Part shown: positions 1 to 20,209 of the stretch, piece by piece
Position numbering within the stretch: the first letter of the stretch is position 1
Layout: every line of letters begins with the position of its first letter
From: a virus
Virus record (IMG/VR): IMGVR_UViG_3300020477_000128
Span: 1 to 24,439 of that record
Reading direction: 5' to 3' (one strand)
DNA: 24,439 nucleotides
Translations under genes and position numbers: made by a program
The notes under the pieces: generated by a model
The model's input: only the letters and a program-made list of their open reading frames with translations
What the model was told of the DNA's origin: nothing
The model's database searches: none

Positions 1-894
1 GATAACTTTGTAGTAAGCAGTGGATCTAAAAGTGTAGAGATATTGGTGGTCGCTGGAGGTGGGGGAGGTGCAACTCAACATGGTGCTGGTGGTGGTGCTG
101 GTGGTGTTCTTCATCATCCAGCACTCAGCGTTTCTGCAGGAACTTATCCTGTAACTGTAGGAGATGGTGGAGCAGGTGCTTTGTCTGGACCTGGACCTGG
201 TAATGGAACGGCAACATATAGTGCAAGTGGTGGCAATTCATACTTTGGACCTCCATCTTCTCCAGCTGGACTAACTGCTGATGGTGGTGGTGGTGCATTC
301 CCATTAGGAAGAAGCGGATCTAGTGGAACTCAACCACTCGTTTATCAAAATGCTCCCCCAACATCTGACCCATATCAAGGTGCTGGATTACCTGGTGGAT
401 CTGGTGGTAGTAGTGGTGATGAACCAGGTAAACCTGGTGGTGCCGCAACACAGACTCCGATGAATGGTGCAACTGGATATGGAAATGCGGGTCAGGATGC
501 TACTGGCGCACCAACTTATAATGCTGGAGGTGGTGGTGGTGCCGGTAACACATCACCAACAGAAGGAAAAGGAGGAAATGGAGAACCATTTACTAACTTC
601 CCTGCTCCTGTAATAAGTCCAGGAGTTCCTTCACCAGAACAAGCGGCATTTGAGTCAGCTGTTGGACCCACTGGTCTGTTTGGAGGTGGAGGTGGGCGAG
701 GAAGTGAAGGAAGTGGAAACCAACAACCTGGTGGACCAGGTGGTGGCGGTGATGGTGCCTCTGGTAGTAATCCGGGCACTAATGGTGGTGCAGCAATATA
801 TGGAACTGGTGGAGGCGGTGGTGGTTCTTCGGGATATGGAGCAACTGGTGGTTCTGGTGGTTCTGGTATTGTAGTTATTCGATATTCAAATTGA
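1..894 (+). CDS. Glycine-rich adhesin-like virion protein (5' end outside window)
   Basis: The reading frame is open from base 1, so the true start lies upstream and the first residues seen (DNFVVSSGSKSVEILVVAGG) are internal. The product is about 298 visible residues, dominated by Gly runs, with Pro, Ser, Thr and Asn between them. It begins with a beta-strand-like piece before the first Gly run and ends in GGSGIVVIRYSN. That layout is typical of phage glycine-rich tip proteins, and the known T4-type gp38 adhesins fold such runs into polyglycine-II helices; the role here is inferred. The body closely resembles the gene at 13930 (shared QHG...GGxLH, GTQTP, ATGYGN and GPTGL segments). A late promoter and fibre gene follow directly. 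Glycine-rich tail-tip protein is likely; the exact receptor is unknown. Confidence 0.8.
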   Translation, partial: DNFVVSSGSKSVEILVVAGGGGGATQHGAGGGAGGVLHHPALSVSAGTYPVTVGDGGAGALSGPGPGNGTATYSASGGNSYFGPPSSPAGLTADGGGGAFPLGRSGSSGTQPLVYQNAPPTSDPYQGAGLPGGSGGSSGDEPGKPGGAATQTPMNGATGYGNAGQDATGAPTYNAGGGGGAGNTSPTEGKGGNGEPFTNFPAPVISPGVPSPEQAAFESAVGPTGLFGGGGGRGSEGSGNQQPGGPGGGGDGASGSNPGTNGGAAIYGTGGGGGGSSGYGATGGSGGSGIVVIRYSN

Positions 895-895
895 T

Positions 896-903
896 TATAA
901 ATA
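896..903 (+). promoter_or_regulatory. T4-type late promoter
   Basis: A perfect TATAAATA octamer lies 20 bp before the start at 924 and two bases after the preceding stop codon. T4-family gp55 sigma recognises this octamer. It is the best match in the window to the canonical form. Confidence 0.75.
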
Positions 904-923
904 ACTAAACTAAGTGTAAACAA

Positions 924-1427
924 ATGTCCCAGTTATTAGTAGACGATATTGTAAATAAGGACGATTCGGGTGCTTTTAGTGCCTCGAAGGGTATTAATGT
1001 CTCTGGGATTGCTACATTAGGAATTGCTAGTGCTTCTCAATTTGAAGTTGCTGGTGTTTCTACTTTCCATGATAATATCCGGGTCCCAGATGATAAGAAA
1101 TTACATTTCGGAAATACAGGAGGTGCTTTCGGTGATCTTCAACTATGGCATGATGCTGGTGCTCATAGTTACATTAGAGATCAAGGAAGTGGTGATTTAC
1201 GCATCTATGGTAGTGCAGTAGACATTCGTGACAATGCAGGTACTGCTAGTGTTGCAAGATTTACTGATGATAGTGTTCACCTTGCTGGTATTACCACGGT
1301 TGGTATTTTAACTGCTTATGAATCGGTAACTATTAAGGTAGGTGCTGGTTCAACTGAAGTGGCTACTGAATTAGCAGCCAAAGCATCAACTGGTAAAGCT
1401 ATTGCTATGGCAATGGTATTTGGATAA
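924..1427 (+). CDS. Fibre-like virion protein
   Basis: 167 residues. The N-terminus MSQLLVDDIVNKDDSGAFSA matches the short anchor found on several other fibre genes here (4704, 10316, 15055, 18257). The middle carries HFGNTGGAFGDLQLWHDAG and the following IRDQGSGDLRIYG, a beta-strand-rich motif I recognise from cyanophage structural proteins. There are also repeated VSGIATxGI-type turns. The C-terminus (VGAGSTEVATELAAKASTG...) differs from the other fibres. It has its own late promoter and is followed after 27 bp by the gene at 1455. A structural role, probably a short tail fibre or fibre shaft, is inferred from composition and context. No enzymatic motif is visible. Confidence 0.7.
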   Translation: MSQLLVDDIVNKDDSGAFSASKGINVSGIATLGIASASQFEVAGVSTFHDNIRVPDDKKLHFGNTGGAFGDLQLWHDAGAHSYIRDQGSGDLRIYGSAVDIRDNAGTASVARFTDDSVHLAGITTVGILTAYESVTIKVGAGSTEVATELAAKASTGKAIAMAMVFG

Positions 1428-1430: not shown

Positions 1431-1454
1431 AACAAGAAGAGGACTTTTTAGGAC

Positions 1455-1850
1455 ATGGCTGCACCAAATATAGTAAATGTAGCGACCATCACTGGTATTA
1501 CTACCAGGATAGCTGGTATCAGCACTGACATTCTTGGTGCAGGAATAAGTACGGTTGTTACAAATGCCGCTGCAAGTGGTAAAGTATTAAAGATTAATTC
1601 ATTGGTTGCAACAGCAATAGGAGATACTACAGGAGTTTCGGTATATTTGTATGATACTGCTAGTGCTCATGGGGGAGCAGGAAGTACAGTTTCATTAGCA
1701 ACGACAATGACTGTTCCTCTTTATTCTTCGTTGGCTGTTATTGATAAGAGTAATTCAATTTATTTAGAAGAAGATACCCAGATAGGTGTTCGCGCACAAT
1801 CAAATGCGGGGGATATAGATGTTGTTTGTTCCTATGAAGACATTAGCTGA
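1455..1850 (+). CDS. Small virion protein, docking-type paralogue A
   Basis: 131 residues, beta-rich, no transmembrane segment and no catalytic motif. It is a divergent paralogue of the products at 5230 and 15667. All three are 118-138 aa. They share an N-terminal stretch with repeated GITT/GIAT turns, a central YxYxxxxxxG region, a late P(L/I)Y or SYPI strand and a closing beta strand. Each stands directly before a glycine-rich gene of the second docking class; here the strong Shine-Dalgarno TAGGAGGG at 1851-1858 leads into the gene at 1866. I infer a collar or adapter between a fibre and the glycine-rich tip. The family is otherwise unknown to me. Confidence 0.65.
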   Translation: MAAPNIVNVATITGITTRIAGISTDILGAGISTVVTNAAASGKVLKINSLVATAIGDTTGVSVYLYDTASAHGGAGSTVSLATTMTVPLYSSLAVIDKSNSIYLEEDTQIGVRAQSNAGDIDVVCSYEDIS

Positions 1851-1865: not shown

Positions 1866-3977
1866 ATGACGATAGGAAAGCGAAAGGGTGCAGCAGCTAA
1901 AGGAACAGGAGCAGCACCGGGAAATGTAGCAAATAGTAAATATGGTGGATCATTAAGTAAGAATGACCATTGGTATTTACACCAAGCATTTGGGATGGTG
2001 GGAGATCCTGGTCTTTCTGGAGCTATGGAGGCTACCGGAGGAATAATTGGTGAATATGTGGATCCAGGTCCTGGTGCAGTTTATAGAACTCATACTTTTA
2101 CGGCATCTGGTAGTTTTGTAGTAAGTAAGATTGGGAGTAGGGATCCAGCAGGTGCTAATTTAGATTATTTAATTATCGCTGGCGGTGGCGGTGGAGGAGG
2201 AGCTTATGAAGCAGGTGGAGGTGGTGCTGGTGGATATAGAGCTAGTACACCTGAAGGACCTGGAGGTCCATCTCCTACTGCAGAATCCAAATATGGTGCT
2301 GCTGTTGGAACTTATACAGTAACTATTGGTGCTGGTGGAGCTGGCGGTGATGATGACCCTCAGGGACCTTTAGGAATTGGAAATGATGGATCCGATACTG
2401 CTTTTTTTCCTGCACCTGTAAGTTCTCCTGATCCCACTTATATGAGTGCAGTTGGGGGAGGTGGAGGTGGAACATATTATTCTCCTTCTCCTCCGGCTAC
2501 AATAGTATTAGGACGGGATGGTGGATCTGGGGGTGGTGCTGCTAACACTCATCCAGGAACTACTGGTCCATTTGCAGGTGGTGAAGGAACAGCGAATCAA
2601 GGATATGATGGTGGTACAAGAGGAAATCAGGCACATGGAACACTTCATAATGGATCAGGTGGTGGTGGTGCTGGTTCAGTAGGAGCAAGTAATACAGATA
2701 ATACAATTGAAGGTTCTACTGGTGGTGATGGAAAGGCTTCTACTATCACTGGTACTTCAATCACTAGAGCAGGTGGAGGTGGTGGCGGTACTTGGAAACC
2801 AGGTAGCGGATCTCCTCCTACTGGAACTGGTGGGGCTGGTGGACCTGGTGGTGGCGGTGTTGGGGGTAATGGACCACCAGGTACTCCTGCTTCTGTAGAT
2901 GCAACTGATGCTACTGAATCTACTGGTTCTGGTGGTGGAGGAAGTGGTGGAAATACTGGATTTGGTGGTGCCGGTGGATCTGGTATAGTTGTTCTTCGTT
3001 ATCCAATTGCATCGTCTACTGGAACAGCAAAAGCAAGTGGTGGGGAAATAAGTTTTTATAATAGTAAAGTAATTCACACTTTTGTAACTTCAGGTACATT
3101 TACTACTGATGCAGGATTTAATGAGACTTGTGAAGTAGTTATCATTGGTGGTGGTGGCGGCGGTGGTGAAGATCAAGGTGGTGCTGGCGGTGCTGGTTGT
3201 TGGCAAGAAAAATCTATTGCAATTAGTACTCCTACTGCAACTCCAATGGCTATAACTGTTGGTGGTGGCGGTAGAGCAGGATATATCCCACGATCCGCTG
3301 GTATTGAAGGTAGTAGTTCATCGGGAGTATTTCCACCAGGAACTGTTACTGCTGGTGGTGGCGGTGGTGGCGGTTATTTAAACAATAATGCACCAGGTCC
3401 ACATGGTGGTTCTGGTGGTGGTGCTGGTGGTCCTAACGATGGTGGTGGCGGAAGAACTGCAGGAGCCACTAGTGCTGATCCATTCCCAGGAACTCCCGGA
3501 GTTAGTCCTGCTAATGGTTGGGGTTTTCCTGGTGGTACTGGTTCTCCTGCCGATAATACAGGTGGCGGTGGAGGCGGTGGTGCTGGCGGTGAAGGATCAA
3601 ATGGTGCTCCTACTGGTGGTGGTACTGGTGGTCTAGGTGTACAGTTACCAACCACTTTCCATAATCCTGAGTCAACTGTAGGATATCCTGGTCCTGGTCC
3701 TTCATCCTATTGGTTAGCTGGTGGTGGTGGTGGTGCTGGTCTTGGAGGTCCTCCAAATGGTGGTGAAGGTGGAGGAAGTGGTGCTCCATATGATAAAGGA
3801 ACTGGTGATTGGGCTGGTGCTGGTAAGGGTGGTATTCAAGCAACAACAGCTGGATCAGGTGGGGTGAATAGTGGTTCTGGTGGAGGCGGACAACAACCAC
3901 CTGCATCCGACGGACCTGCAGGGTTCAATGCCGGAAAAGGTGGATCGGGAATTGTTCTTATAGCATATCCTGCATAA
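1866..3977 (+). CDS. Large double glycine-rich adhesin-like protein
   Basis: 703 residues, about twice the length of the other glycine-rich proteins. Residues 1-50 are a basic, low-glycine head (MTIGKRKGAAAK..., DHWYLHQAFGM) that may dock to the virion. The first glycine-rich domain starts with a hydrophobic strand (DYLIIAGGGGG) and closes at about residues 370-381 with GSGIVVLRYPI. A second complete domain begins near residue 392 (SKVIHTFVTSGTF, then EVVIIGGGGGGG) and closes with GSGIVLIAYPA at the C-terminus. Each domain thus has its own opening and closing strands, which argues for fusion or duplication of two tip domains. It lies 15 bp after the gene at 1455 with a strong ribosome site and probably shares its transcript. 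A receptor-binding tip role is inferred. Confidence 0.78.
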   Translation: MTIGKRKGAAAKGTGAAPGNVANSKYGGSLSKNDHWYLHQAFGMVGDPGLSGAMEATGGIIGEYVDPGPGAVYRTHTFTASGSFVVSKIGSRDPAGANLDYLIIAGGGGGGGAYEAGGGGAGGYRASTPEGPGGPSPTAESKYGAAVGTYTVTIGAGGAGGDDDPQGPLGIGNDGSDTAFFPAPVSSPDPTYMSAVGGGGGGTYYSPSPPATIVLGRDGGSGGGAANTHPGTTGPFAGGEGTANQGYDGGTRGNQAHGTLHNGSGGGGAGSVGASNTDNTIEGSTGGDGKASTITGTSITRAGGGGGGTWKPGSGSPPTGTGGAGGPGGGGVGGNGPPGTPASVDATDATESTGSGGGGSGGNTGFGGAGGSGIVVLRYPIASSTGTAKASGGEISFYNSKVIHTFVTSGTFTTDAGFNETCEVVIIGGGGGGGEDQGGAGGAGCWQEKSIAISTPTATPMAITVGGGGRAGYIPRSAGIEGSSSSGVFPPGTVTAGGGGGGGYLNNNAPGPHGGSGGGAGGPNDGGGGRTAGATSADPFPGTPGVSPANGWGFPGGTGSPADNTGGGGGGGAGGEGSNGAPTGGGTGGLGVQLPTTFHNPESTVGYPGPGPSSYWLAGGGGGAGLGGPPNGGEGGGSGAPYDKGTGDWAGAGKGGIQATTAGSGGVNSGSGGGGQQPPASDGPAGFNAGKGGSGIVLIAYPA

Positions 3978-4703: not shown

Positions 4704-5207
4704 ATGTCAACACTTATTGCTGATAAACTTAAATCAAGGAATACTGGGACGGCAGTTTCTGTTACTGATAGCCTGATTATCGTTGGTTACGGTACAGTTA
4801 CACAGGATCTAGCAGTAGAAGGTAACTTAAATGTTACTGGGGATTTAGTATATGATGAAGCAACTGCTGTTAATTTAGATGTAAGTGGTATTGCAACTGT
4901 TGGAACTCTTGGAGTAACTGGTGTTGCTACTGCATATAATCTAGAAGTTATTGGTATTGCAACCGTTGGAACTCTGGGAGTAACCGGTCTTGCCACTGCA
5001 TATAATCTAGAAGTTATTGGTGTAACCACAGTTGGTTCTGGGGTTACTATTAGTGTTGCCGGTGTTGATGCTGTCTCTGGTGTTATAACTGCAACAACTG
5101 GATCTTATAGTGGAACAGTTACTGCAAATGCATTTGAAGGAGATGGTGCCGGACTTACTGGATTACCTGCGGGGTTCACTGAACTTGATGCAGCTTTGTT
5201 TAACTAA
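4704..5207 (+). CDS. Fibre-like virion protein with 22-residue repeats
   Basis: 167 residues. The N-terminus MSTLIADKLKSRNTGTAVS is the fibre anchor type. Residues about 62-105 contain two near-identical 22-residue repeats (GIATVGTLGVTG...YNLEVI), followed by a third, decayed unit (GVTTVGSGVTIS). Such repeats usually form a trimeric beta-helical shaft. The C-terminal FEGDGAGLTGLPAGF is the common phage-fibre GDGSxLTG motif also seen in 15055 and 17679. AGGAG at 4691-4695, inside the previous gene, serves as ribosome site, so it is coupled to the gene at 4005. A shaft segment is a reasonable inference. Confidence 0.7.
   Translation: MSTLIADKLKSRNTGTAVSVTDSLIIVGYGTVTQDLAVEGNLNVTGDLVYDEATAVNLDVSGIATVGTLGVTGVATAYNLEVIGIATVGTLGVTGLATAYNLEVIGVTTVGSGVTISVAGVDAVSGVITATTGSYSGTVTANAFEGDGAGLTGLPAGFTELDAALFN
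4887..5018 (+). repeat. Two tandem 66-bp in-frame repeats
   Basis: Units 4887-4952 and 4953-5018 differ at only a few, mostly third-codon, positions and encode the same 22-residue fibre repeat with one V/L change. A weaker third unit starts at 5019. The period is a whole number of codons, so gain or loss of a unit keeps the frame. Confidence 0.85.
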
Positions 5208-5229: not shown

Positions 5230-5646
5230 ATGGGACTCAAAAGAACTAAACTATTAGACATCCAATCTGTTACTGGTATTGCTACGGTTGGTATTTTTAC
5301 CGTTGGTGTTACTGATTGTACTGGTCCTGTTGGTGTTGCATCCACCACATATCTACGTGGGGTGATGATGCACAATACTGGATTAAATACTTGTACTTCT
5401 TCTTTATTCATATATCCTGCTGGTGCAGCAAGACCTGAGGCTTTATCATATGCAACGACTGATTATAGATTGACAAAAGTAGATCTTAGTGAAGCTGAGA
5501 CATTTTTCTTTGAACCTAATTATCCTATTGTATTAGTAGATCGTGAATCTATTGTTGTAGAGGTAAGTGTGTCTAATATATCAGGAAGTGGTATAGGAAG
5601 TGTAGTAAATTATCAGATTCTTGGCGATACTGACATTCCGGGTTGA
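5230..5646 (+). CDS. Small virion protein, docking-type paralogue B
   Basis: 138 residues, beginning MGLKRTKLLDIQSVTGIATV. It is a paralogue of 15667 (MALERGKLTDVITLGLG...). Shared points are the charged MxLxRxKL start, a central YxxxVMxHxxG/SIMAYAPYAG strand, (N/S)YPIV(L/I)(V/I)D near the C-terminus, and a final NYQILGD/NFLITGD strand. The product at 1455 is a more distant relative. It has a late promoter, and the 59-residue gene at 5658 follows after 11 bp. The recurring position just ahead of glycine-rich genes suggests an adapter role in the fibre tip (inference). Confidence 0.7.
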   Translation: MGLKRTKLLDIQSVTGIATVGIFTVGVTDCTGPVGVASTTYLRGVMMHNTGLNTCTSSLFIYPAGAARPEALSYATTDYRLTKVDLSEAETFFFEPNYPIVLVDRESIVVEVSVSNISGSGIGSVVNYQILGDTDIPG

Positions 5647-5657: not shown

Positions 5658-5837
5658 ATGGGAGTTAGAACTACTAGTAAAAATGCAGGACCTACGGGTG
5701 TAAATAGTACTCAATGGATGGATGGACATGCTGATAAGTATTATAATACCAACTTCGATAGAGGTGAGGTATATCTTCCCCAACAACCTGAGATGAATAA
5801 TTTTGGCGATGGGTCTGATGGTGACCTTAATACATAG
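5658..5837 (+). CDS. 59-residue protein, possible detached docking head of the next glycine-rich protein
   Basis: An ATG at 5658 with GAGGTAATT-type ribosome site just upstream opens a 59-codon frame ending TAG at 5835-5837. That stop overlaps the TAGGAGGA ribosome site of the next gene. The product is hydrophilic: basic N-terminus MGVRTTSKNAGPTGVN, then WMDGHADKYYNTNFDRGE. It is low in glycine runs. Its DGxxxxxYxxxxF segment recalls the low-glycine heads of 16027 (LDGQLNSRYFRR) and 1866 (SLSKNDHWYLHQAF). Since the glycine-rich gene at 5850 lacks such a head, this may be the same head as a separate gene. That idea is inference; expression is supported by spacing and ribosome site only. Confidence 0.65.
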   Translation: MGVRTTSKNAGPTGVNSTQWMDGHADKYYNTNFDRGEVYLPQQPEMNNFGDGSDGDLNT

Positions 5838-5849
5838 GAGGATAGATAA

Positions 5850-6911
5850 ATGGCTAATGTAACTTTTCCTGCTACTACTGATGGTGATGCTATCGTTAAA
5901 CAGTATAGTAGTATTACCATTAATAGTGGTGATACAGTAACCGTAGATAATAAATGTAAAGGTCTTATACTCTATTGTACAGGAAATTGTACTATAAATG
6001 GTACATTATCCATGGATGAAAAAGGTGCCGCAATGAACGCACCTACACCAGGAGGAGCAATATCACCTAATGGTTTAAGATGGGTTTGGTATGCACCTGG
6101 ATCAACAGGAGGACCTCTTAGTCAACCAGATGTACCTTTAGCAGTTTTAGGACCAGCTGCCGCAGCGATGGATAATCCGGCTGCATATAATGAACCTGAA
6201 ATAACTACAGTTCAATCCATAGTTACAGGTGGTACTGGGGGAAATAACGCTAGTGGCAATTCTGGTGGTTGGCCTGCGAGAAGTGAGAGAGATGGTGGTG
6301 ATGGTCCTGGAGAGGGCGCAACTGGTGGTGGTGGCGGTGGTACTGGTTTTGCTGGTGGTGGTACTGGTGGTGCCGGATATGCTTGGTGTGGCGGCGGTGG
6401 CGGCGGCGGTGCAGGTGCTGGCGGTTATGGTATAGCTGGAGAATCTGCTCCCCCTACTAATACTACTGGTGGAGGCAATGGTGGTTCTGGACCTGAAGGG
6501 GGTAGAGTAGGTGGTGGCGGAGGAGCAGGATCTCCGGCGGGAGAAGGCGCACCTGATCCTGATGGAAATGGTCTTGACGGAGGCGGTGCTGGTGGATTAA
6601 TATGTTTATTCGTACAAGGAAATATAGATATAGGTCCTACGGGAGCAATAAAGGCTCGTGGTGGTGAGGGTGGTAATGCTGCTCCTCCGGGTGCAGGTTC
6701 AAATGGTGGCGGTGGTGGTGGAGCCGGCGGTGGGAGAATTATAATCTGTCATGGTGGAACCTATACTAATAATGGAACTGTTAGCGTTGATGGTGGAACA
6801 GGTGGTGGAGGTGGTCCTACTCCTGCTAGTGCTCCTAATCCTAATAGAGCTGGAAATGGTGGTGCTGGAGCGATTACTGTAGTTCCAGTTGGAGTGCAGA
6901 AACCAATTTAG
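5850..6911 (+). CDS. Glycine-rich adhesin-like protein, distinct type
   Basis: 353 residues, with TAGGAGGA at 5835-5842 as ribosome site. Residues 1-60 are a strand-rich, cysteine-containing head (SITINSGDTVTVDNKCKGLI, then LYCTGNCTINGTLSMDEKG) unlike the other glycine-rich proteins. A long Gly-rich body follows, with GGGGGGGAGAGGYG-type runs and a second strand block (AGGLICLFVQGNIDIGPTGA, GGRIIICHGGTYTNNGTVSV). The end, ITVVPVGVQKPI, lacks the usual GSGIVIIRY strand. The product is probably a tip adhesin of a different subfamily. The stop codon overlaps by 4 bp, on opposite strands, with the stop of the minus-strand gene. Confidence 0.75.
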   Translation: MANVTFPATTDGDAIVKQYSSITINSGDTVTVDNKCKGLILYCTGNCTINGTLSMDEKGAAMNAPTPGGAISPNGLRWVWYAPGSTGGPLSQPDVPLAVLGPAAAAMDNPAAYNEPEITTVQSIVTGGTGGNNASGNSGGWPARSERDGGDGPGEGATGGGGGGTGFAGGGTGGAGYAWCGGGGGGGAGAGGYGIAGESAPPTNTTGGGNGGSGPEGGRVGGGGGAGSPAGEGAPDPDGNGLDGGGAGGLICLFVQGNIDIGPTGAIKARGGEGGNAAPPGAGSNGGGGGGAGGGRIIICHGGTYTNNGTVSVDGGTGGGGGPTPASAPNPNRAGNGGAGAITVVPVGVQKPI

Positions 6912-8030: not shown

Positions 8031-8037
8031 ATAAATA
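8027..8037 (+). promoter_or_regulatory. Late promoter
   Basis: CTAAATA and AATAAATA overlap here, directly on the stop codon of the gene at 7509 and 17 bp before the start at 8055. Confidence 0.6.
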
Positions 8038-8054
8038 TATAAAAAAAGACTAAA

Positions 8055-8340: not shown

Positions 8341-8363
8341 ATCACTGAATACATCATAGGTTT

Positions 8364-8984: not shown

Positions 8985-8994
8985 GAGGTAAGTC

Positions 8995-10307: not shown

Positions 10308-10315
10308 CTAGAATA

Positions 10316-12305: not shown

Positions 12306-13916
12306 ATGTCAGCAGCAAGAGAACTAGGTAATTTAGGTAATCAAAACGCATTAACGGTTGATACCGCCAATTTAAAAGTTGGTATTGTATCTACTTCTCC
12401 TGTTGGTGAGCTTCAGGTTGGTTCTGCTATCACAATGGGTAGTGCGAGTGGTATTATTAGTGCTACTGCATATTATGGTGATGGTGCTAACTTAGAAAAT
12501 GTAGCCAGTGCGGGATTAGGAACAGCGATTAGTAGCACTAAGACGGAAGCAAATAATTTAATTTACTATACTAATGCTGTTTTAGGTATTGGAAGTACTA
12601 CTACTGTTGTTACTCCGGCCAGTACTAATGTTGCATATACTCAATATACTGATATTGATGTTACTGAAAATTGCGATTTAATTGTTGCCGATGGTGATGA
12701 TTTTGTTCCGGATGTATTGGGATTATCAACTGCTGGAATTTCAAACATGAGTGGTGCGGGTGGTAGAGTCCGTGCAGGTCAGTTTGTAAATAATGCAGGA
12801 AGTGGTGCTCCACAATTACCTTATGGTGCAGAAATTCCTGTTGGTTATGGATTAACGGGTGCAGGTCAAATTTACCTTAGTGGTATAGCATCTATTACTA
12901 ATACTACGGAATCTACTTCGGCTACTACTGGTGCATTAGTAATTAGTGGTGGTGTAGGAATAGCAAAGAGTCTTAATGTTACTGGTAACGTAACAGTTGG
13001 TGGTACATTAACCTATGAAGATGTAACTAATATTGATTCTGTTGGTATTGTAACTGGTAGGGTAGGATTCTATGCAGGAACAACACAAGGATCAGGAACA
13101 GGTATTGGTGCTACTATATTAAATACTGGTAATGCAGTTTTTGCTGGTATTGTAACTGCTTCTAGTTTCAGTGGCGCAACGAATGAATGGGTTTTAGGTG
13201 CGGATGGTACATCAAATTATACTTTTACTGGACCTGGATTAACTGGTGCAGAAAATGATCCTAGCATTTATGTGACAAGAGGAGAGAAATATAACTTTAA
13301 GAATTCATCAGGTGGACATCCATTTAGAATTCAAAGTACCCCTAATGGTTCAACTGGAACTCAATATAATGATGGTATTACTAATAATGATGCTGGTGAT
13401 GGAACAACTTTAATATGGGATGTACAGTTTGATTCTCCTAGTCTTCTTTATTATCAATGTACTGCTCACGCAAACATGGGTGGTAAAATATATGTTGGTA
13501 ATAGTGGATCTGGTACCCTTTTAGAAGGAACTTTAGTAGAAGGAATGACTTCTACTACCACTGCATATAGTAGCAGTAGTGATCTTAATATATCTAATAG
13601 TAATTTCCATTTTAGTTCTGCTAATTTAGCAGGAACTAATAATACTCTTAATATTATGTCTAATACGGGCATAAACACTGACATGGCTGATAATCAGGTA
13701 ATGAACGTTACTGCTTTAACTGCCGTTAATGCTTCAACTGCTTTTGTAGATAAGATATCTATTGATGGAAAAGGAGTTGGAATTACAACTCATTGGGTAG
13801 GGGGTAGTGTTCCTACTGATGGTGGAGGAAGTGGAGTAGATACTTATAGTTTTAATATAATGAAGACGGGGGATGAAACATTTATAGTTATTGCTAATCA
13901 AGTGAAGACTTCGTAA
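12306..13916 (+). CDS. Long mosaic tail-fibre protein with cupredoxin-like domain
   Basis: 536 residues, the longest fibre gene here. Residues 1-147 match the N-terminus of 17679 (LQVGxAITM..GxIxA module). Residues about 148-185 (MSGAGGRVRAGQFVNNAGSG, APQLPYGAEIPVGYGLTGAG) match the N-terminus of 10316, including an in-frame internal ATG at 12747, so it looks like a fusion of two fibre genes. Residues about 209-242 are the ALVISGGVGIAKSLN block. Residues about 295-397 resemble a cupredoxin: GGHPFRIQ (H338) and YYQCTAHANMGGKIYVG (C385, H388, M391) could form a type-1 copper site. Residues about 400-536 match the C-terminal docking domain of 10316. The glycine-rich gene at 13930 follows. A structural role is inferred. 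Confidence 0.8.
   Translation: MSAARELGNLGNQNALTVDTANLKVGIVSTSPVGELQVGSAITMGSASGIISATAYYGDGANLENVASAGLGTAISSTKTEANNLIYYTNAVLGIGSTTTVVTPASTNVAYTQYTDIDVTENCDLIVADGDDFVPDVLGLSTAGISNMSGAGGRVRAGQFVNNAGSGAPQLPYGAEIPVGYGLTGAGQIYLSGIASITNTTESTSATTGALVISGGVGIAKSLNVTGNVTVGGTLTYEDVTNIDSVGIVTGRVGFYAGTTQGSGTGIGATILNTGNAVFAGIVTASSFSGATNEWVLGADGTSNYTFTGPGLTGAENDPSIYVTRGEKYNFKNSSGGHPFRIQSTPNGSTGTQYNDGITNNDAGDGTTLIWDVQFDSPSLLYYQCTAHANMGGKIYVGNSGSGTLLEGTLVEGMTSTTTAYSSSSDLNISNSNFHFSSANLAGTNNTLNIMSNTGINTDMADNQVMNVTALTAVNASTAFVDKISIDGKGVGITTHWVGGSVPTDGGGSGVDTYSFNIMKTGDETFIVIANQVKTS
12932..13045 (+). repeat. Shared fibre block, copy in gene 12306
   Basis: Same block as 10621-10737 and 18373-18489. The match to the latter includes GTAGGAATAGCAAAGAGTCT and the bases following. 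Confidence 0.8.
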
Positions 13917-13929: not shown

Positions 13930-15024
13930 ATGTTTGGTAATCAGTGGCATAAGAAAGAAAAACCATTACCTACTATAATAGGATTGGGTGGTGGTGCTAC
14001 GAGTTTGGTGAATACTGGTTCTGCTGGATTCGTTGCATCAGGAGGTAATATAGATGGATTAGAACCTGGAAATGGATATAAGTATCATGCTTTTACTGCT
14101 AGTGGATCTTTTGTAGTAGCTGCAGGAGGATCTGCTGATTTCTTAGTCATTGGTGGTGGTGGCGGTGGTGCTCAACAACATGGAGGTGGTGGAGGTGCCG
14201 GAGGAATATTGCATGGATCTGAACTAACTTTAAGTGAGGGAACTTATACAGTAACAATTGGTTCAGCAGGAGCACCAGGATTAAATGCTGATGATGGTCA
14301 AGGAACTTATGCTGGTGCAGGTGGTGACACATATTTGGGACTTCCAGGAGACCCAACCGCACAGTGGACTGGTGAAGGTGGAGGAGGAGGTTTTCCATCC
14401 GGCAGAAATGCTGCATATTTTGACCCTACCAACCCTTGTCTTGCAACTTTAGTCCAAGGTAATGCTCCTCCTACATGTGGCCCCTTAGCAGGAAACGGAA
14501 TGCCTGGTGGATCAGGTGGTGCAACAGGAAACGAAAATCCTACTCCTTCCGTAGGGGGTGAAGGAACTCAAACACCTGCTAATAGTGCAACAGGATATGG
14601 AAATGATGGTACTTGGGCAAGCAATGGTCAAGCTGGTGGAGGCGGTGGTGCTAATGCTGCGGGTGGTCCAAGAGATGGTGGTGCGGGACAACCTTTCCCT
14701 GGATTTGCTGGACCTTTACTAACAGGAATGCCTACCGACTTTATAAGTGCAACAGGACCAACGGGTCTTTATGGAGGAGGTGGTGGTGCTGGTGGTTCTG
14801 GTAGTGCTCCTGCTGGTGGTGAAGGTGGAACTGGTGGAGGTGGAGATGGTGGACCTGGACCTCATCCAGGAACTGCTGGATCTGCTGGTGTAGATTATAC
14901 TGGTGGTGGCGGTGGAGGCAGTGGTGGTCTTGGACCTCCTCCTCGTTCTTCTTGTAATGTGGATAATGGTGCTACTGGCGGTGCCGGTGGTGCAGGGTGT
15001 GTTTTAATTCGTTATCAGGTTTGA
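13930..15024 (+). CDS. Glycine-rich adhesin-like protein, MLNNSW-type docking
   Basis: 364 residues from the ATG at 13930 (a TTG lies one codon upstream). TAAGGAG at 13914-13920 is well spaced for this ATG, and MFGNQWHKKEKPLPTIIG aligns with the heads at 11303 and 19133. Next come a strand pair (YKYHAFTASGSFVVAAGG, ADFLVIGGGGGG) and the Gly-rich body. Body segments AQQHGGGGGAGGILH, EGTQTP, ATGYGNDG and GPTGLYGGG are shared with the first gene of the window. It ends in GGAGCVLIRYQV. It is probably co-transcribed with 12306 and interacts with its C-terminal domain (inference). Confidence 0.78.
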   Translation: MFGNQWHKKEKPLPTIIGLGGGATSLVNTGSAGFVASGGNIDGLEPGNGYKYHAFTASGSFVVAAGGSADFLVIGGGGGGAQQHGGGGGAGGILHGSELTLSEGTYTVTIGSAGAPGLNADDGQGTYAGAGGDTYLGLPGDPTAQWTGEGGGGGFPSGRNAAYFDPTNPCLATLVQGNAPPTCGPLAGNGMPGGSGGATGNENPTPSVGGEGTQTPANSATGYGNDGTWASNGQAGGGGGANAAGGPRDGGAGQPFPGFAGPLLTGMPTDFISATGPTGLYGGGGGAGGSGSAPAGGEGGTGGGGDGGPGPHPGTAGSAGVDYTGGGGGGSGGLGPPPRSSCNVDNGATGGAGGAGCVLIRYQV

Positions 15025-15054: not shown

Positions 15055-15639
15055 ATGTCCCAGATTAATGTCGATACCATTAGAAGCCGAGAAGGTATAG
15101 CACCTTCGTTGGATAAAGGTGTCATTGTAACTGGTGTTACAACTTCTACTGAGGGATATTTTAGTGGTAATGTAACGATTGGTGGTACATTAACTTATGA
15201 AGATGTAACCAATCAAGATGTTATTGGTTTAATTACTGCAAGAAGTGGAATTAAGATTGGTAATGATCAAGATGCCACTGGTATTGGTATAACTCTTGGT
15301 ACTGGTGATATTGGAGCTGCTTCTTTTACAGGAATTGTAACTGCTGGAACTTGTATTAAGGTAGGTAATCCATCAGCGATTGGTATTGCTGCCACTATAC
15401 TGAGTGATGGTAATGCAGTGTTTGCTGGTATAGTAACTGCTAGTGAGTTTAGTGGTGATGGTTCTAATTTAACTGGTGTTGTATCTGGTGTTGAATTATC
15501 AGCGGATGGAAGTTCGGTGGGAAGTGCAATTACTGCGATTAATTTTGCAGGATTTGATTCTGTAACTACTCCTGCTGCTGGACTGTCTACTGTTACTGCT
15601 GGATGGAGTCAAGAAGACGCTTGGCTGTTTGGCTCTTAA
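15055..15639 (+). CDS. Fibre-like virion protein
   Basis: 194 residues. Anchor MSQINVDTIRSREGIAPSLDKG is followed by a partial shared block (GNVTIGGTLTYEDVTNQDVI, residues about 38-57). Two further modules follow: GLITARSGIKIGNDQDATGI and ILSDGNAVFAGIVTASEFSG. The latter is shared with 12306. The GDGSNLTGVVSG motif is common in phage fibres. The C-terminus SQEDAWLFGS is short and lacks the docking domain of 10316 and 12306, which fits with its being followed by a different type of partner (15667). It has its own late promoter. A fibre shaft role is inferred. Confidence 0.72.
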   Translation: MSQINVDTIRSREGIAPSLDKGVIVTGVTTSTEGYFSGNVTIGGTLTYEDVTNQDVIGLITARSGIKIGNDQDATGIGITLGTGDIGAASFTGIVTAGTCIKVGNPSAIGIAATILSDGNAVFAGIVTASEFSGDGSNLTGVVSGVELSADGSSVGSAITAINFAGFDSVTTPAAGLSTVTAGWSQEDAWLFGS

Positions 15640-15666: not shown

Positions 15667-16023
15667 ATGGCACTGGAAAGAGGAAAACTAACTGATGTTA
15701 TTACCCTAGGATTGGGTAATACTGTTGCTGGTGTAACGGTGGCAGGTAATAAGAAGGTGTATGTGAAGTCAATAATGGCTTATGCTCCTTATGCTGGGAT
15801 TTCTTCAGGAACTGCTCAGGTTTATATGGTTCCTAATAGTGGAGGAAGTGCGGGAACAGCAAATACTACTAATCAGATTTTTAATGTAGATGTATATGCA
15901 GGAGAGACAGTATTAATAGAACCTTCATATCCTATTGTTATTGATTCGACAGGAGATACAATACAAGTAGGAACAGGTTTAACTACTATTAATTTCTTAA
16001 TTACTGGCGATAAGGAGGCGTAA
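15667..16023 (+). CDS. Small virion protein, docking-type paralogue C
   Basis: 118 residues: MALERGKLTDVITLGLGNTV at the start, VKSIMAYAPYAGISSGTAQV in the middle, and ETVLIEPSYPIVIDSTGDTI then NFLITGDKEA at the end. It is clearly related to the product at 5230 and more distantly to 1455. No catalytic residues or membrane segment are visible. Its last codons carry the ribosome site AAGGAGG (16012-16018) of the glycine-rich gene at 16027, only 3 bp away, so translation is likely coupled. I infer an adapter between fibre 15055 and tip 16027. Confidence 0.7.
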   Translation: MALERGKLTDVITLGLGNTVAGVTVAGNKKVYVKSIMAYAPYAGISSGTAQVYMVPNSGGSAGTANTTNQIFNVDVYAGETVLIEPSYPIVIDSTGDTIQVGTGLTTINFLITGDKEA

Positions 16024-16026
16024 TCG

Positions 16027-17085
16027 ATGGCTCCTCTTAGAAGTACTTTAGGTAAAAGTTTAGGTAGTCTTCTTCGGGTTGGAAGAGGGAAAGATTTAGC
16101 TGGCAGTAAGGAGGGTGGTGCTGCATTAGATGGGCAATTAAATAGTAGATACTTCCGACGTACACCACCACCGCCGTCACCTAGCCCAATAACTGGTGGT
16201 ACAGTATTACCTGCTCCTAGTCGGAGTGGATACAGGGTTCATGAATTTACTTCTTCAGGATCTTTGGTTGTTCCTACCCTGGCAGTGAATCCTGCAGGTA
16301 GTCCCATAACTCAAGTGGAGCTTTTAGTATGCGCTCCTGGTGGAGGGGGCGGATTTTGTAATCCTGGTGACGGCGGCGGCGGCGGCGGAGGCGGCGGTGC
16401 TGTATATTATGATACTACATATTCTCTTTCTCTGGGTACTACTTATACGGTTACCCTTCCAGAGGGTGGAGAAGGTTCCACTAGCAATGCTAGTCACGGA
16501 TCAAAAGGAGGAGATGCTGTCTTTGGACCATTGACAATTGAAGGTGGCGGCGGCGGTGGATCGACTCGTGCTACAGGTACACTACCCGGAGGGGGTTGTA
16601 CTGGTGGAGCTGCTAGTGATTTATGTCCTAATGATGCTACTTCTTCTACTGGGGCTTCTTGGCCTTCAAGTCCAACTGCCAGTTCCCCTCCTGTGGGATT
16701 TGGTCAGGATGGTGGTGATAATGACACTGGATCAGCTGGTGCTGGTGGTGGAGGTGCTGGCGGTGCTGCTGGTGGAGTTGGTCCTATTGCTTCCAATCCA
16801 AATAATGCAACACCTGGTGGTGAAGGAATCTCTTATAGTATAAGTGGAAGTGCCATTTATTATGGTGGTGGTGGAGGTGGAGGAGCATATAGTAGCAACC
16901 CTCCAGCTGGTATAGGTGCTGGATATGATGGTCCTACTGGCGGTGGTGGTCCTGGTGGTCTAAATGCCCCAGGAGAAAATGCTAATGGAGTCGGTGGCGG
17001 TGGTGGCGGTGGAGGAATGCCTGGTGAAAGACCAGGTGGTGATGGATCTAAGGGAAGAGTATATGTTGCTTATCCGAGTGCGTGA
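16027..17085 (+). CDS. Glycine-rich adhesin-like protein with basic and proline-rich head
   Basis: 352 residues. The head (MAPLRSTLGKSLGSLLRVGR, GKDLAGSKEGGAALDGQLNS, RYFRRTPPPPSPSP) differs from the MLNNSW type and resembles in character the head of 1866. After YRVHEFTSSGSLVVPT and a VELLVCAPGGGGG strand comes a Gly-rich body. The body is very like that of 19133 (shared GFCxPGxGGGGGGGG, AVxY, GSKGGD, YGGGGGGGAYS and AGxGGEG segments). It closes with GRVYVAYPSA, a variant of the usual final strand. An uninterrupted run of nine Gly codons, five of them GGC, starts at 16372. Receptor-binding tip is inferred. Confidence 0.78.
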   Translation: MAPLRSTLGKSLGSLLRVGRGKDLAGSKEGGAALDGQLNSRYFRRTPPPPSPSPITGGTVLPAPSRSGYRVHEFTSSGSLVVPTLAVNPAGSPITQVELLVCAPGGGGGFCNPGDGGGGGGGGGAVYYDTTYSLSLGTTYTVTLPEGGEGSTSNASHGSKGGDAVFGPLTIEGGGGGGSTRATGTLPGGGCTGGAASDLCPNDATSSTGASWPSSPTASSPPVGFGQDGGDNDTGSAGAGGGGAGGAAGGVGPIASNPNNATPGGEGISYSISGSAIYYGGGGGGGAYSSNPPAGIGAGYDGPTGGGGPGGLNAPGENANGVGGGGGGGGMPGERPGGDGSKGRVYVAYPSA

Positions 17086-17175: not shown

Positions 17176-17616
17176 ATGGCTCACTTTGCAAAACTAGACG
17201 CTAACAATGTTGTTGAGCAAGTCATCGTTGTGAGTAATGATGACATTAAAGATAATAGCGGAACCGAGGTAGAAAGTATTGGCGTTGCTTTCTGTCAGAA
17301 ACTATTAGGTGCTAATACAAACTGGAAGCAAACCTCTTACAATAATAATATGAGAGGTAATTATGCGGGTATAGGGATGACCTATGCAGAGAATGTTGCT
17401 ACTCTTGGAGTGGCATCAACAGATATATTCATTGGAGTTAATACTCATCCATCATGGAGTGTGGGAGTTAATACAGCACAGTGGTATCCACCTGCTAATC
17501 CAGGAGATGCTCCGGCATTAACAGATGCAGAGATGGAGGCAGGTAAATCTTACGTATGGAACGAAACTGATTATAACGCAGATCCGTCAACAGCATGGAA
17601 TCTTATCACATCATAA
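17176..17616 (+). CDS. Conserved cyanophage-type hypothetical protein
   Basis: 146 residues: MAHFAKLDANNVVEQVIVVS, NDDIKDNSGTEVESIGVAFC, LGANTNWKQTSYNNNMRGNY and AGIGMTYAENVATLG. I recognise this N-terminal pattern from many cyanophage genomes, where the product is of unknown function. The C-terminal half has WYPPANPGDAPALTDAEMEA and closes with ADPSTAWNLITS. It is soluble, with a single Cys (residue 40). It is a single-gene unit with its own late promoter and a strong terminator directly after it, unlike the coupled genes around it. A virion or assembly role is possible because of position, but nothing in the sequence shows it. Confidence 0.72.
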   Translation: MAHFAKLDANNVVEQVIVVSNDDIKDNSGTEVESIGVAFCQKLLGANTNWKQTSYNNNMRGNYAGIGMTYAENVATLGVASTDIFIGVNTHPSWSVGVNTAQWYPPANPGDAPALTDAEMEAGKSYVWNETDYNADPSTAWNLITS

Positions 17617-17678: not shown

Positions 17679-18224
17679 ATGGCGATTACCAATGCAAGTA
17701 GGTTAGCTGATTTTGGTTCGGGTATAGGAACCGCAGGTGCCGTATTACAAATTGATAATGCAAATGATCGAATAGGTATTGGAACTACCAATCCTCAGAA
17801 TACATTGCAGGTTGGTATTGCTATTACCATGAATGGAATGACAGGGGTTATTACTGCCCAGTCATTTGATGGTGATGGATCTGCATTAACTGGTGTTGCT
17901 AATACTGGTTTTATTAATGCTACTCAACTTAATGTTATTGGTGTTACTACATCAGGTAGTTTTGAAGGTGATGGTTCTGCATTAACTGGAATCAGTGGAT
18001 TTGCAACTGCACTTTCTTCTAACAGTGCTGATTTTTTAAGTAATATATTCCAAACTCCTGAAATATTACCCGTTGGTGCTGGAACATCTGTTCAGATTAC
18101 AGGTTCAAGTGGGAATGGTAATGTAACTTTTACTAGATTTGGTAGTATTCATATGGGTACTGGATCAACTTTGACGGTAAGTACAGGAACTACCTTTGTG
18201 ATGAATGTGCTTAATGTATTTTGA
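17679..18224 (+). CDS. Fibre-like virion protein
   Basis: 181 residues. The N-terminus (NDRIGIGTTNPQNTLQVGIA then ITMNGMTGVITAQSF) contains the IGIGTxxPxxxLxV pattern common in phage fibre and peptidase-chaperone contexts. It matches residues 1-75 of 12306. Two GDGSALTG motifs (SFDGDGSALTGV and SFEGDGSALTGI) flank a NVIGVTTSG turn. The C-terminus (GSIHMGTGSTLTVSTGTTFV) resembles that of 4005. No glycine-rich partner follows directly; the next gene is another fibre with its own late promoter. A fibre shaft or tip role is inferred from composition. Confidence 0.72.
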   Translation: MAITNASRLADFGSGIGTAGAVLQIDNANDRIGIGTTNPQNTLQVGIAITMNGMTGVITAQSFDGDGSALTGVANTGFINATQLNVIGVTTSGSFEGDGSALTGISGFATALSSNSADFLSNIFQTPEILPVGAGTSVQITGSSGNGNVTFTRFGSIHMGTGSTLTVSTGTTFVMNVLNVF

Positions 18225-18230
18225 TAAATA
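18223..18230 (+). promoter_or_regulatory. Late promoter
   Basis: GATAAATA overlaps the stop codon of 17679 and lies 26 bp before the start at 18257; AAAGGAATT at 18239-18247 is the likely ribosome site. Confidence 0.6.
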
Positions 18231-18256
18231 AAACATAGAAAGGAATTTAGAAACCA

Positions 18257-19117
18257 ATGTCTGAAATTAGGGTTAACGAACTTAAAAGTGAAGATGGAAC
18301 GGGTGCTCCTTCTTTTCCGGTTGGTATTGTCACGATTGCTGATACAACGGAATCAACCGCAACTGATGATGGTGCATTAGTAATAAGTGGTGGGGTAGGA
18401 ATAGCAAAGAGTCTTAATGTTGGGGGTAATGTTACCGTTGGCGGAACTCTAACTTATGAGGACGTAACTAATCAAGATGTATTGGGTCTGAGTACATATA
18501 GAAATGGATTAAATGTAGGATCGGAAGAAGGATCGGGTACTGGTGTTGCTATTACCTTTACCAATCAGGGTAATGCATACTTTGGTAGAACAGGTATTAT
18601 AACTGCTACGCAATTTGTAGGAATTATTACAGGAACTGATGATGTAACGGTAGGTGTTGGTACTACTGCAACTACATTCAGAACAGTTGATGGAGGCACC
18701 CAGAATAACTTCGGTGGTGTGATGAAGGAAGAGTGTGCAATTATTGGAAATAATCTGACGACTGTTGGTGTTGATTTAGCAAAAGGGAATGTTCATTATT
18801 ATACAACTAATGGATCGGGAGCCACTACTGCTGCTATTACTTATCAAGGAGGTAATAATGTAAGTAGTTGGATGGCAATAGGTGATAATGTTTCAGTTAG
18901 TATTATTACTAAACCTAATAACTCAGAGTATGTAAATGCAGTAACCATTGATGGTGGTGCAGTAACAGAAGAATGGTCAGGGGGTAGTACTCCCGCAGCG
19001 GCTAGTGGAGCAGCAAGTTCTTGGACTATTACAACTATTAATATTACTAAGATAGCAGCGACAGGCACTCCAAATAGTGATTATTTGGTCTTATGTCAAT
19101 TTACTAACTATGCATAA
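18257..19117 (+). CDS. Tail-fibre-like protein pairing with glycine-rich tip
   Basis: 286 residues. Anchor MSEIRVNELKSEDGTGAPSF then the shared block at residues about 39-75 (GALVISGGVGIAKSLNVGGN, VTVGGTLTYEDVTNQDVLG). A GSEEGSGTG...NQGNAYFGRTG module follows. A middle section (VGTTATTFRTVDGGTQNNFG, MKEECAIIGNNLTTVGVDLA) is not seen in the other fibres. The C-terminal domain (SEYVNAVTIDGGAVTEEWSG, GSTPAAASGAASSW, then an ITKIA strand) is a divergent form of the docking domain of 10316 and 12306. It is followed closely by 19133, whose head is of the MLNNSW type, supporting a matched fibre-tip pair. Confidence 0.77.
   Translation: MSEIRVNELKSEDGTGAPSFPVGIVTIADTTESTATDDGALVISGGVGIAKSLNVGGNVTVGGTLTYEDVTNQDVLGLSTYRNGLNVGSEEGSGTGVAITFTNQGNAYFGRTGIITATQFVGIITGTDDVTVGVGTTATTFRTVDGGTQNNFGGVMKEECAIIGNNLTTVGVDLAKGNVHYYTTNGSGATTAAITYQGGNNVSSWMAIGDNVSVSIITKPNNSEYVNAVTIDGGAVTEEWSGGSTPAAASGAASSWTITTINITKIAATGTPNSDYLVLCQFTNYA
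18373..18489 (+). repeat. Shared fibre block, copy in gene 18257
   Basis: Third full copy of the block at 10621-10737 and 12932-13045, with mainly synonymous differences. A truncated copy lies at 15160-15225. Confidence 0.8.
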
Positions 19118-19132
19118 GGGGAGGGTTGATTG

Positions 19133-20209
19133 ATGTTAAATAACAGTTGGTTTAAAAAAGAAAGACCTCTTCTTGGTTTGTTTGGGTCTGGGGGAGGACT
19201 TTCCACTGGTGTTGCTTCACCTTTTGAAGCTAGTGGTGGAAGTAAAACCACATCTGGTGATCAAACCCTTCATACCTTTACTTCTCCTGATGGAAATGAT
19301 TATCCCGATCCTGCTGGATTTGTTTGCACTGGGGGAAGTACCAGTGAGATCAAGATTTTAGCCGTTGGTGGCGGTGGTGGTGGCGGTGGGTTTTGTCCAG
19401 GTGGTAGTGGTGGAGGCGGCGGCGGTGCTGTTGTCTATCTTGAAAGTATATCAGCGAGTGGTGGTACGACTTATCCCATAACCATTGGAGGTGGTGGTGC
19501 CGCAGGTGGTCCAAACGCAAATGGATCAAAGGGTGGAGATACTACTACTCCATTAAACACTCTTACGGCATTAGGTGGCGGTGGTGGAATAGTAAATAAT
19601 TCTCCTACTGATGGTGGAGGACCTACGGTAGGATCTGGTGGAGGAGGAAATACTCAATCAGGATCTAGTCCTGGAGGTGGACAACCAGATAACCCACAAC
19701 CTGGATTAGGTGCATCCCCTGGACATCCAGGAGCATCAGATGTAGCATCTCCTCCTGGTGGATGGGGTAATCCTGGTGGATCTGGAAGAGGTGTATCGGC
19801 TCCTGCATATTTTGGCGGCGGTGGTGGTGGTGCTTATAGTGGTGGATCTCCTAATCCAGGTGGATCTCCTCTTCCTGTTGGTGGTGCTGGTGGTGAAGGT
19901 GCAGATTATACTATAAGTGGATCTCCTGTCGGCTATGGCGGCGGCGGTGGTGGTGGTGGTGGTGATGAAACCTCTAATCCTGCTTTAAATGGAGGGCAAG
20001 CACCTACTGTTGGTGGTGGGGGAGCAGGAGGAAGATCTCCTGCTAGACCCCAAACTAGTGGTGGAGATGGAGTGGCTAATACTGGTGGCGGAGGAGGAGG
20101 TCATGGATATGCCACGCCTGGACCTCATGCAGTACCTGCTACTTGTGGACCTGGTGGAGAGGGTGGTTCAGGAATTATAATAATTTCATATCCTACTCCG
20201 GACGCTTAG
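19133..20209 (+). CDS. Glycine-rich adhesin-like protein, MLNNSW-type docking
   Basis: 358 residues from the ATG at 19133 (a TTG lies one codon upstream); AAGGGGAGGG at 19116-19125 is the ribosome site. The head MLNNSWFKKERPLLGLFG is nearly identical to that of 11303. After a HTFTSPDGNDYPDP loop and SEIKILAVGGGGGGGGF strand comes a body strongly like that of 16027 rather than 11303. A run of nine Gly codons (three GGC then six GGT) lies at 19937-19963. It ends GGSGIIIISYPTPDA. It is the last gene of the adhesin locus and is followed by a strong hairpin. Receptor-binding tip is inferred. Confidence 0.78.
   Translation: MLNNSWFKKERPLLGLFGSGGGLSTGVASPFEASGGSKTTSGDQTLHTFTSPDGNDYPDPAGFVCTGGSTSEIKILAVGGGGGGGGFCPGGSGGGGGGAVVYLESISASGGTTYPITIGGGGAAGGPNANGSKGGDTTTPLNTLTALGGGGGIVNNSPTDGGGPTVGSGGGGNTQSGSSPGGGQPDNPQPGLGASPGHPGASDVASPPGGWGNPGGSGRGVSAPAYFGGGGGGAYSGGSPNPGGSPLPVGGAGGEGADYTISGSPVGYGGGGGGGGGDETSNPALNGGQAPTVGGGGAGGRSPARPQTSGGDGVANTGGGGGGHGYATPGPHAVPATCGPGGEGGSGIIIISYPTPDA

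What the first reader, a model, noticed from the sequence alone, without database searches (positions are those of the whole stretch)
1..20209. Repeating array of fibre/adapter plus glycine-rich tip pairs with two docking classes
Seven glycine-rich genes follow fibre-like or small adapter genes. Class A tips start M(L/F)xNxWxKKE(K/R)P (11303, 13930, 19133) and follow fibres with a common C-terminal domain (WxGGSxPxDGG type; 10316, 12306, 18257). Class B tips have basic heads (1866, 16027, perhaps 5658+5850) and follow the 118-138-residue adapter family (1455, 5230, 15667). The head sequence therefore predicts the partner upstream. A multi-tip array of this size would give one virion several receptor specificities, or a store of tips for recombination.
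Basis: partly seen in the sequence, partly recalled or inferred. Interest (0 to 1): 0.78.

Follow-up and report, generated by a model that had tools for sequence, protein, structure and literature searches.

The report
Phage adhesin tips with matched docking tags
This marine virus of bacteria carries a row of sticky "fingertip" proteins, each starting with a short tag that matches the fibre end encoded just before it, and the same tag-to-fibre matching recurs across many ocean phages, which suggests a plug-and-socket system for swapping host-recognition tips.

Summary
The window has seven glycine-rich ORFs (one truncated, one split); six have a visible upstream partner, a fibre C-terminal domain or a stand-alone 118-138-aa protein. 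The "two docking classes" are too few: there are at least six head/partner pairings (A, B1, B2, B3, C, D), four of them in the window. The three "adapters" are not one family.

Over 141 non-redundant pairs from 88 contig groups, the first 30 tip residues predict the partner class for 136 when the tip's own contig is left out; the body predicts 50. Shuffling heads within contigs gives at most 50 matches against 70 of 74 observed. Head models trained on glycine-rich tips also recognise heads on unrelated bodies (LamG, fn3, DUF7483). A prospective head-first search gave the predicted partner in 6 of 6 new cases.

The modelled tip body resembles the receptor-binding part of cyanophage Pam3 fibre (Z 13.7); the adapter models as a jelly roll. 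Best reading: fibre, cap, short docking head, exchangeable adhesin. Docking is inferred, not shown; simultaneous display on one virion is untested. One window tip (1866) lacks a recognisable head. A syntenic array exists in cultured Synechococcus phage Bellamy, so the idea is directly testable.

The parts
1..894 (+). Glycine-rich tip body, head cut off by the contig edge
   Evidence: PF21722 4.6e-13; phrog_2295 5.8e-32, phrog_863 (tail fibre assembly, gp38 type) 1.7e-4
924..1427 (+). Short fibre segment upstream of the B2 adapter
   Evidence: weak matches to phage tail fibre families phrog_8745/19195
1455..1850 (+). Class B2 cap/adapter, 131 aa, always stand-alone
   Evidence: A4 alignment; at least 489 relatives in IMG/VR; unrelated to B1/B3 by profile
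1866..3977 (+). Glycine-rich tip, 703 aa, two tandem glycine-rich units; head atypical for B2
   Evidence: phrog_2295 1.5e-89; head model -0.6 bits
4005..4703 (+). Fibre base segment
   Evidence: phrog_18345 tail fibre 9.5e-17
4704..5207 (+). Fibre segment upstream of the B3 adapter
   Evidence: weak matches to baseplate wedge families
5230..5646 (+). Class B3 cap/adapter, 138 aa
   Evidence: phrog_20100 1.4e-42; homologous to 15667
5658..5837 (+). Head-only ORF, 59 aa: B3 docking head plus NNFGDGSDGDLNT tail
   Evidence: B3 head model 20.2 bits; counterpart in L149 ends NYWGDGSDGDFESS
5850..6911 (+). Separate glycine-rich body of a different family, paired with head ORF 5658
   Evidence: 51% identical to L149:10286-11374, which also follows a head-only ORF
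10316..11290 (+). Fibre with class A C-terminal cap domain
   Evidence: phrog_5906 at 195-322, phrog_36132 at 1-93
11303..12271 (+). Class A tip
   Evidence: A head model 41.4 bits; PF21722 4.9e-7
12306..13916 (+). Fibre with class A cap; N-terminal part is a fused phrog_28668 base segment
   Evidence: phrog_28668 4-140, phrog_36132 154-259, phrog_5906 407-532
13930..15024 (+). Class A tip
   Evidence: A head model 50.5 bits; phrog_2295 2.7e-23
15055..15639 (+). Fibre segment upstream of the B1 adapter
   Evidence: phrog_6942 tail fibre 1.2e-9
15667..16023 (+). Class B1 cap/adapter, 118 aa, predicted jelly roll
   Evidence: AlphaFold2 pLDDT 89.7; structure matches
16027..17085 (+). Class B1 tip
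   Evidence: B1 head model 26.2 bits; body matches Pam3 fibre 7ypx Z 13.7
17679..18224 (+). Fibre base segment (phrog_28668), separate here, fused in 12306
   Evidence: phrog_28668 9.2e-49
18257..19117 (+). Fibre with class A C-terminal cap domain
   Evidence: phrog_5906 2e-14; BLASTP to 10316 1e-41
19133..20209 (+). Class A tip
   Evidence: A head model 42.7 bits; PF21722 2.6e-7

Best explanation
The region encodes several distal tail-fibre assemblies of a tailed phage, most likely a T4-like cyanophage related to Bellamy. Each assembly runs fibre segment(s), then a cap, then an adhesin. The cap is either a C-terminal domain of the fibre (classes A, C, D) or a small stand-alone jelly-roll protein (B1, B3; by analogy B2). 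The adhesin starts with a 20-45-residue docking head that fits only its own cap class. The rest of the adhesin is exchangeable: here a TNF-like/glycine-rich receptor-binding domain like that of Pam3 gp24, elsewhere LamG, fn3 or DUF7483 bodies. Shown: statistical head-cap coupling, independence of the body, portability of heads across body folds, predicted folds. Inferred: physical docking, orthogonality of classes in the virion, and that recombination between head and body changes host range.
For: Head predicts cap class in 136/141 non-redundant pairs with own contig excluded (88 contig groups), body in 50/141; within-contig shuffles reach at most 50 against 70/74 observed. Restricted to remote partners, head 96/148 against body 9/148 and 14.7 by permutation. 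Body similarity hardly differs within and across classes (0.214 vs 0.202), head similarity does (0.285 vs 0.127); one contig (L233) carries bodies 56% identical on B3 and C heads. Head models trained only on glycine-rich tips classify non-glycine-rich downstream genes: A 21/25, B2 21/39, B3 3/4, B1 1/1, C 4/8, against 0.9% (A) and 2.1% (B2) of 1228 control ORFs. Prospective head-first scan for class C: 6/6 new contigs with a held upstream gene had a class C cap. Tandem tips keep their class head although separated from the cap by one or two genes. Tip model matches Pam3 fibre Z 13.7 and Bxb1 tail tip Z 13.0. Precedents: swapping the gp38 N-terminus restores T2 gp37 compatibility (PMC12892980); a ~30-aa RBP2 N-terminal peptide docks on RBP1 in Przondovirus (PMC13073335).
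Against: No complex structure could be predicted (single chains only) and the head has pLDDT below 50. The window's own tip 1866 lacks a recognisable B2 head. About half of the non-glycine-rich genes after B2 adapters are not recognised, and the B2 homologue in phage S-CBWM1 is followed by a phosphoesterase. The L149 head-only ORF scores higher as A (11.4) than C (5.8) although its partner is C. No proteomics.
Confidence: 0.77

Rival explanations
1. Head and cap are coupled only because they are neighbours at a recombination boundary: the conserved cap-end/head-start DNA serves as a homology arm for exchanging tips, with no docking.
For: Head and cap sequences are directly adjacent (gaps of about -12 to +28 nt in nearly all pairs); bodies are exchanged freely.
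Against: Heads with 64-77% amino-acid identity already differ at 21-48% of fourfold third positions, so DNA homology is poor while protein is kept. Tandem tips not adjacent to a cap keep the class head. Coupling holds for remote caps.
Confidence: 0.1
2. The small B-class proteins are assembly chaperones of the tips, as Pam3 gp25 is for gp24, rather than structural caps.
For: The closest structural relative of the tip body needs a dedicated chaperone (PMC9608196); B proteins are small and adjacent.
Against: They lie upstream of the tip; A, C and D caps occupying the same place are parts of fibre proteins. A chaperone that holds the body, as gp25 does, should track the body, but the body is not coupled. 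The B1 model is a jelly roll resembling HFTV1 turret and KHP40 trimeric cement protein.
Confidence: 0.12
3. Co-inheritance: conserved orthologous loci descend vertically, and head-cap matching only marks which orthologue each tip is.
For: Part of the array is syntenic with Bellamy.
Against: Bodies at the same loci are not conserved; within-contig shuffles and remote-cap tests remain strong; the class A pair occurs in T7-like podovirus contigs as well.
Confidence: 0.1

Closest known systems
Pam3 myocyanophage fibre gp24 (PDB 7ypx, 7yfw; PMC9608196)
   Same: Tip body residues 67-352 match it (Z 13.7, rmsd 3.3 A, 177 aligned residues, 28% identity): TNF-like sandwich plus glycine-rich receptor-binding loops.
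   Different: gp24 has a long N-terminal helical domain that docks on the baseplate and a separate chaperone gp25; the tips here have only a 20-45-residue head and sit after a fibre cap.
T-even gp38 adhesin on gp37 (T2, PP01, S16; PMC12892980)
   Same: Separate glycine-rich receptor-binding protein encoded after the fibre, attached by its N-terminus; N-terminus sets compatibility with the fibre.
   Different: One adhesin per phage; attachment region of about 113 aa, with three short helices in S16; beta-helix before the glycine sandwich. Here several adhesins, short heads, different cap folds.
Przondovirus RBP1/RBP2 docking (PMC13073335)
   Same: A short conserved N-terminal peptide (~30 aa) on an otherwise variable receptor-binding protein docks on a domain of another fibre protein; shown to be interchangeable.
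   Different: One dock type (T4gp10-like) and tailspike bodies; here at least six head/cap pairings, up to four in one genome fragment, on several body folds.
Bxb1 mycobacteriophage tail tip protein (PDB 9d93)
   Same: Fold match of tip body, Z 13.0.
   Different: Siphovirus tail hub context.

Membership tests
Pam3 gp24-type glycine-rich receptor-binding domain | TNF-like sandwich with glycine-rich motifs | tested here: met
   AlphaFold2 model of 16027, pLDDT 80-93 in most of the sandwich core; Z 13.7 to 7ypx; PF21722 for six window tips, one of them (13927) below the curated cut-off
Pam3 gp24-type glycine-rich receptor-binding domain | Long N-terminal helical baseplate-docking domain | tested here: not met
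   Only about 45 residues precede the body; model shows one short helix 12-20 at low confidence
Pam3 gp24-type glycine-rich receptor-binding domain | Tfa-like chaperone gene directly downstream | tested here: not met
   Downstream genes are fibre segments, oxygenases or unknowns, no Tfa match
T-even gp38 adhesin | Sequence membership in gp38-type family | tested here: inconclusive
   phrog_863 matches only 1-894 (1.7e-4) and 16027 (9e-6), in the glycine-rich part; no PDB sequence match to 6F45
T-even gp38 adhesin | About 110-aa N-terminal attachment domain | tested here: not met
   Heads are 20-45 aa and fall in several unrelated classes
Przondovirus RBP2 docking peptide | Short conserved N-terminus, variable body | tested here: met
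   Head and body similarity and cross-class prediction
Przondovirus RBP2 docking peptide | T4gp10-like branching domain as partner | tested here: inconclusive
   No Pfam match for caps 1455, 5230, 10316, 12306, 18257; B1 fold matches are jelly rolls; gp10 domain not compared directly
Kyanoviridae (T4-like cyanophage) | Core T4-like genes | not testable with these tools
   The record is a 24.4-kb fragment; synteny of the array with Bellamy is shown

The most novel reading that the evidence does not exclude
Marine phages of different morphotypes share a set of at least six mutually exclusive short docking tags and cognate fibre caps, a common socket standard, so that whole adhesins of any fold can be traded between phages and loci; single virions display several specificities at once.
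Probability: 0.4. Interest if true: 0.85.

Novelty: new variant of a known kind. Interest (0 to 1): 0.66.

Why it matters
What sets host range in abundant marine phages is poorly known, and the few array proteins found in deposited phages are annotated as hypothetical or only as tail fibre or putative lectin. If heads are docking tags, a 30-residue motif identifies the adhesin and its socket from sequence alone, whatever the adhesin's fold, and explains how tips are exchanged without breaking assembly. The cultured phage Bellamy (Synechococcus WH8109) carries six such pairs in four classes, so the idea can be tested in a laboratory system.

Tried and rejected
Two-class scheme: rejected, at least six classes. 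One adapter family: rejected. KKE(K/R)P as a class A marker: rejected, shared with C. A hand-written regex for class A heads was partly written after seeing the non-glycine-rich heads, so the conclusion rests instead on profile models trained only on glycine-rich tips; many of the control ORFs that scored there are further tips in the same arrays. Cap fusions: no B-class adapter fused to a fibre among the sets found, so I could not show that adapters are detached fibre ends. S16 gp38 did not appear among fold matches, which does not exclude it. PDB sequence searches gave nothing useful. Class A caps gave no match in the annotated phage collection. No papers describing this system were found; the paper on gp38 adhesins of the T4 superfamily (Trojet 2011) is not held.
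Full report
What was checked. The window is a complete 24,439-base IMG/VR record, a fragment of a virus. It holds seven glycine-rich ORFs, 28-33% glycine. Six match the Pfam glycine-rich domain PF21722 and/or phrog_2295; the seventh, 5850, does not. Class A tips start at 11303, 13930 and 19133 if the ATG is used (one codon after the ORF start) and follow fibres 10316, 12306 and 18257, whose C-terminal ~130 aa align and match phrog_5906. Of the three proposed adapters, 15667 and 5230 are homologous, but 1455 is not related to them by BLASTP or profile comparison.

The wider sample. I fetched relatives by a class A head DNA pattern, by each adapter family, by class A and class C fibre ends, and from cultured phages. 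Each glycine-rich ORF was paired with the gene directly upstream. Unsupervised clustering of the last 110 aa of the partners gave the classes A (with a small subclass), B1, B2, B3, C and D. By profile comparison B1 and B3 are related, A and D weakly related, and B2 and C unlinked. Typical heads: A, MLNNSWFKKEKPLxGLxGxGGG; C, (KKEKP)xFTGLKFGFG; B1, MAPxKSSLxRSxGKLL; B2, MxxxNGGxIGxxxxPT or MGYIGRRIG; B3, MGARSTxxxxxxxxDGHLLEYFRxxFGAGGG; D, M(A/S)PxLSR. B-class partners are always stand-alone (longest 188 aa), whereas A, C and D partners are fibre ends (median 251-288 aa).

Statistics. In 149 non-redundant pairs the nearest other head has the same partner class in 140, the nearest body in 51, permutation mean 23 and maximum 37. 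With the tip's own contig left out, and two minor clusters dropped, 136 of 141 heads against 50 of 141 bodies predict the class; the confusion matrix is almost diagonal. In 23 contig groups with two or more classes 70 of 74 tips match, while 20,000 within-contig shuffles average 29.6 and never exceed 50. This controls for phage relatedness. If similar partners are excluded, heads still predict 96/148 against 9/148 for bodies. Body similarity is the same within and between classes (0.214, 0.202) and head similarity is not (0.285, 0.127); in L233 two tips of one phage have bodies 56% identical but B3 and C heads.

Portability. Models of heads trained only on glycine-rich tips were applied to non-glycine-rich genes downstream of the same partners: A 21 of 25, B2 21 of 39, B3 3 of 4, B1 1 of 1, C 4 of 8. 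Of 1228 control ORFs 11 scored as A and 26 as B2. The foreign bodies examined include Laminin_G_3, fn3 and DUF7483 domains. In phage S-SKS1 a B2 adapter is followed by two genes with NGGxIG heads, the first of which carries a LamG domain. A prospective scan for the class C head DNA pattern gave six tips in new contigs with a held upstream gene; all six partners were class C (109-158 bits), and a seventh tip followed a same-head tip in tandem. Two of the six (L291, L310) look closely related. Class A pairs also occur in contigs with a T7-type fibre N-terminal domain PF03906 and a phrog_6651 internal virion protein.

The window's own fit. With models trained without the window, the three A tips score 41-50 bits, the B1 tip 26 and the head-only ORF 5658 20 bits as B3, matching partner 5230. 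Tip 1866 is not recognised as B2 although adapter 1455 is B2; by eye only IGKRKG resembles IGRRIGK. The 5658/5850 pair is a split tip: 5658 ends in NNFGDGSDGDLNT, and 5850 has its own start and ribosome site. In L149, from a related phage, a 51% identical body follows a 53-aa head-only ORF ending NYWGDGSDGDFESS whose head is of the A/C type, after a class C fibre. So the same body appears with a different head. The L149 head scores higher as A than as C (11.4 and 5.8 bits), so this is only supporting evidence.

Structure. The model of tip 16027 (mean pLDDT 61, sandwich core mostly 80-93, head below 50) matches Pam3 fibre gp24 at Z 13.7 and the Bxb1 tail tip at Z 13.0, well above the next group (ALK/LTK, about 7). 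[quoted passage not shown] The adapter 15667 model (pLDDT 90) is a ten-strand jelly roll, best matched to the HFTV1 turret (Z 10.1) and the KHP40 trimeric cement protein (8.9), with many other jelly rolls close behind, so only the fold, not the function, follows.

Mechanism. Best reading: fibre segments end in a cap; a short head on the next gene's product plugs into the cap of its class; the rest of that product is the adhesin. Alternatives considered: DNA homology arm (against: third positions diverged at kept amino acids, tandem tips keep heads), chaperone (against: upstream position, cap fused to fibre in three classes, body not coupled), and vertical co-inheritance (against: within-contig shuffles and remote tests). 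Physical contact has not been shown.

One virion or a store? The window and Bellamy mostly give each tip its own cap in several classes, which would allow co-display. L180, L185, L193 and L167 carry further same-head tips after one cap, which fits a store of alternatives. Both may exist; neither is shown.

Novelty. A docking N-terminus on a separate adhesin is known (gp38, PMC12892980; Przondovirus RBP2, PMC13073335). New here are the number of separate head/cap pairings in one genome, their sharing across myovirus- and podovirus-type contigs, and their use with several adhesin folds. I found no description of it in the papers searched.

Noticed in passing
6908-10286: Five genes in the middle of the array are 2OG-Fe(II) oxygenases or matches to families annotated 'ferrochelatase'. 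Relatives of 8364-8984 lie in 51 of the fetched loci, 50 of which also hold a glycine-rich tip, and the cassette is syntenic in Bellamy. They might hydroxylate residues of the tips; untested.
   Followed up: partly
12306-13916 versus 17679-18224 and 18257-19117: 12306 fuses a phrog_28668 base segment to a fibre segment; at 17679/18257 the same two parts are separate genes, suggesting that fibre segments join end to end.
   Followed up: partly
924, 4704, 10316, 15055, 18257: Fibre segments share a start of the type MSxIRVDxLxxxxGTGAPSF, which may itself be a docking head for the segment before it.
   Followed up: no
5658-6911; L149:10086-11374: Split tips: a head-only ORF ending GDGSDGD(L/F) followed by a separate glycine-rich body, each with its own ribosome site.
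   Followed up: partly
L180, L185, L193, L167, L139, L306: Two or three tips with the same head class in tandem after one cap, some with different body types.
   Followed up: partly
L266 (S-SKS1) 8001-11257: B2 adapter followed by two genes with NGGxIG heads and non-glycine-rich bodies (LamG detected in the first), annotated hypothetical.
   Followed up: partly
17176-17616: phrog_7759 protein recurs inside these arrays; in L057, L078, L083 and L100 a similar small gene overlaps the start of a second B2-type tip.
   Followed up: no
18794-24439: 99.9% identical to L009 (IMGVR_UViG_3300030329_000721), which continues for 7.8 kb beyond the window.
   Followed up: no
22073-22615 and 22827-23135: Phosphoribosyltransferase and 2Fe-2S ferredoxin genes downstream of the array; Bellamy also has a ferredoxin gene downstream.
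   Followed up: no
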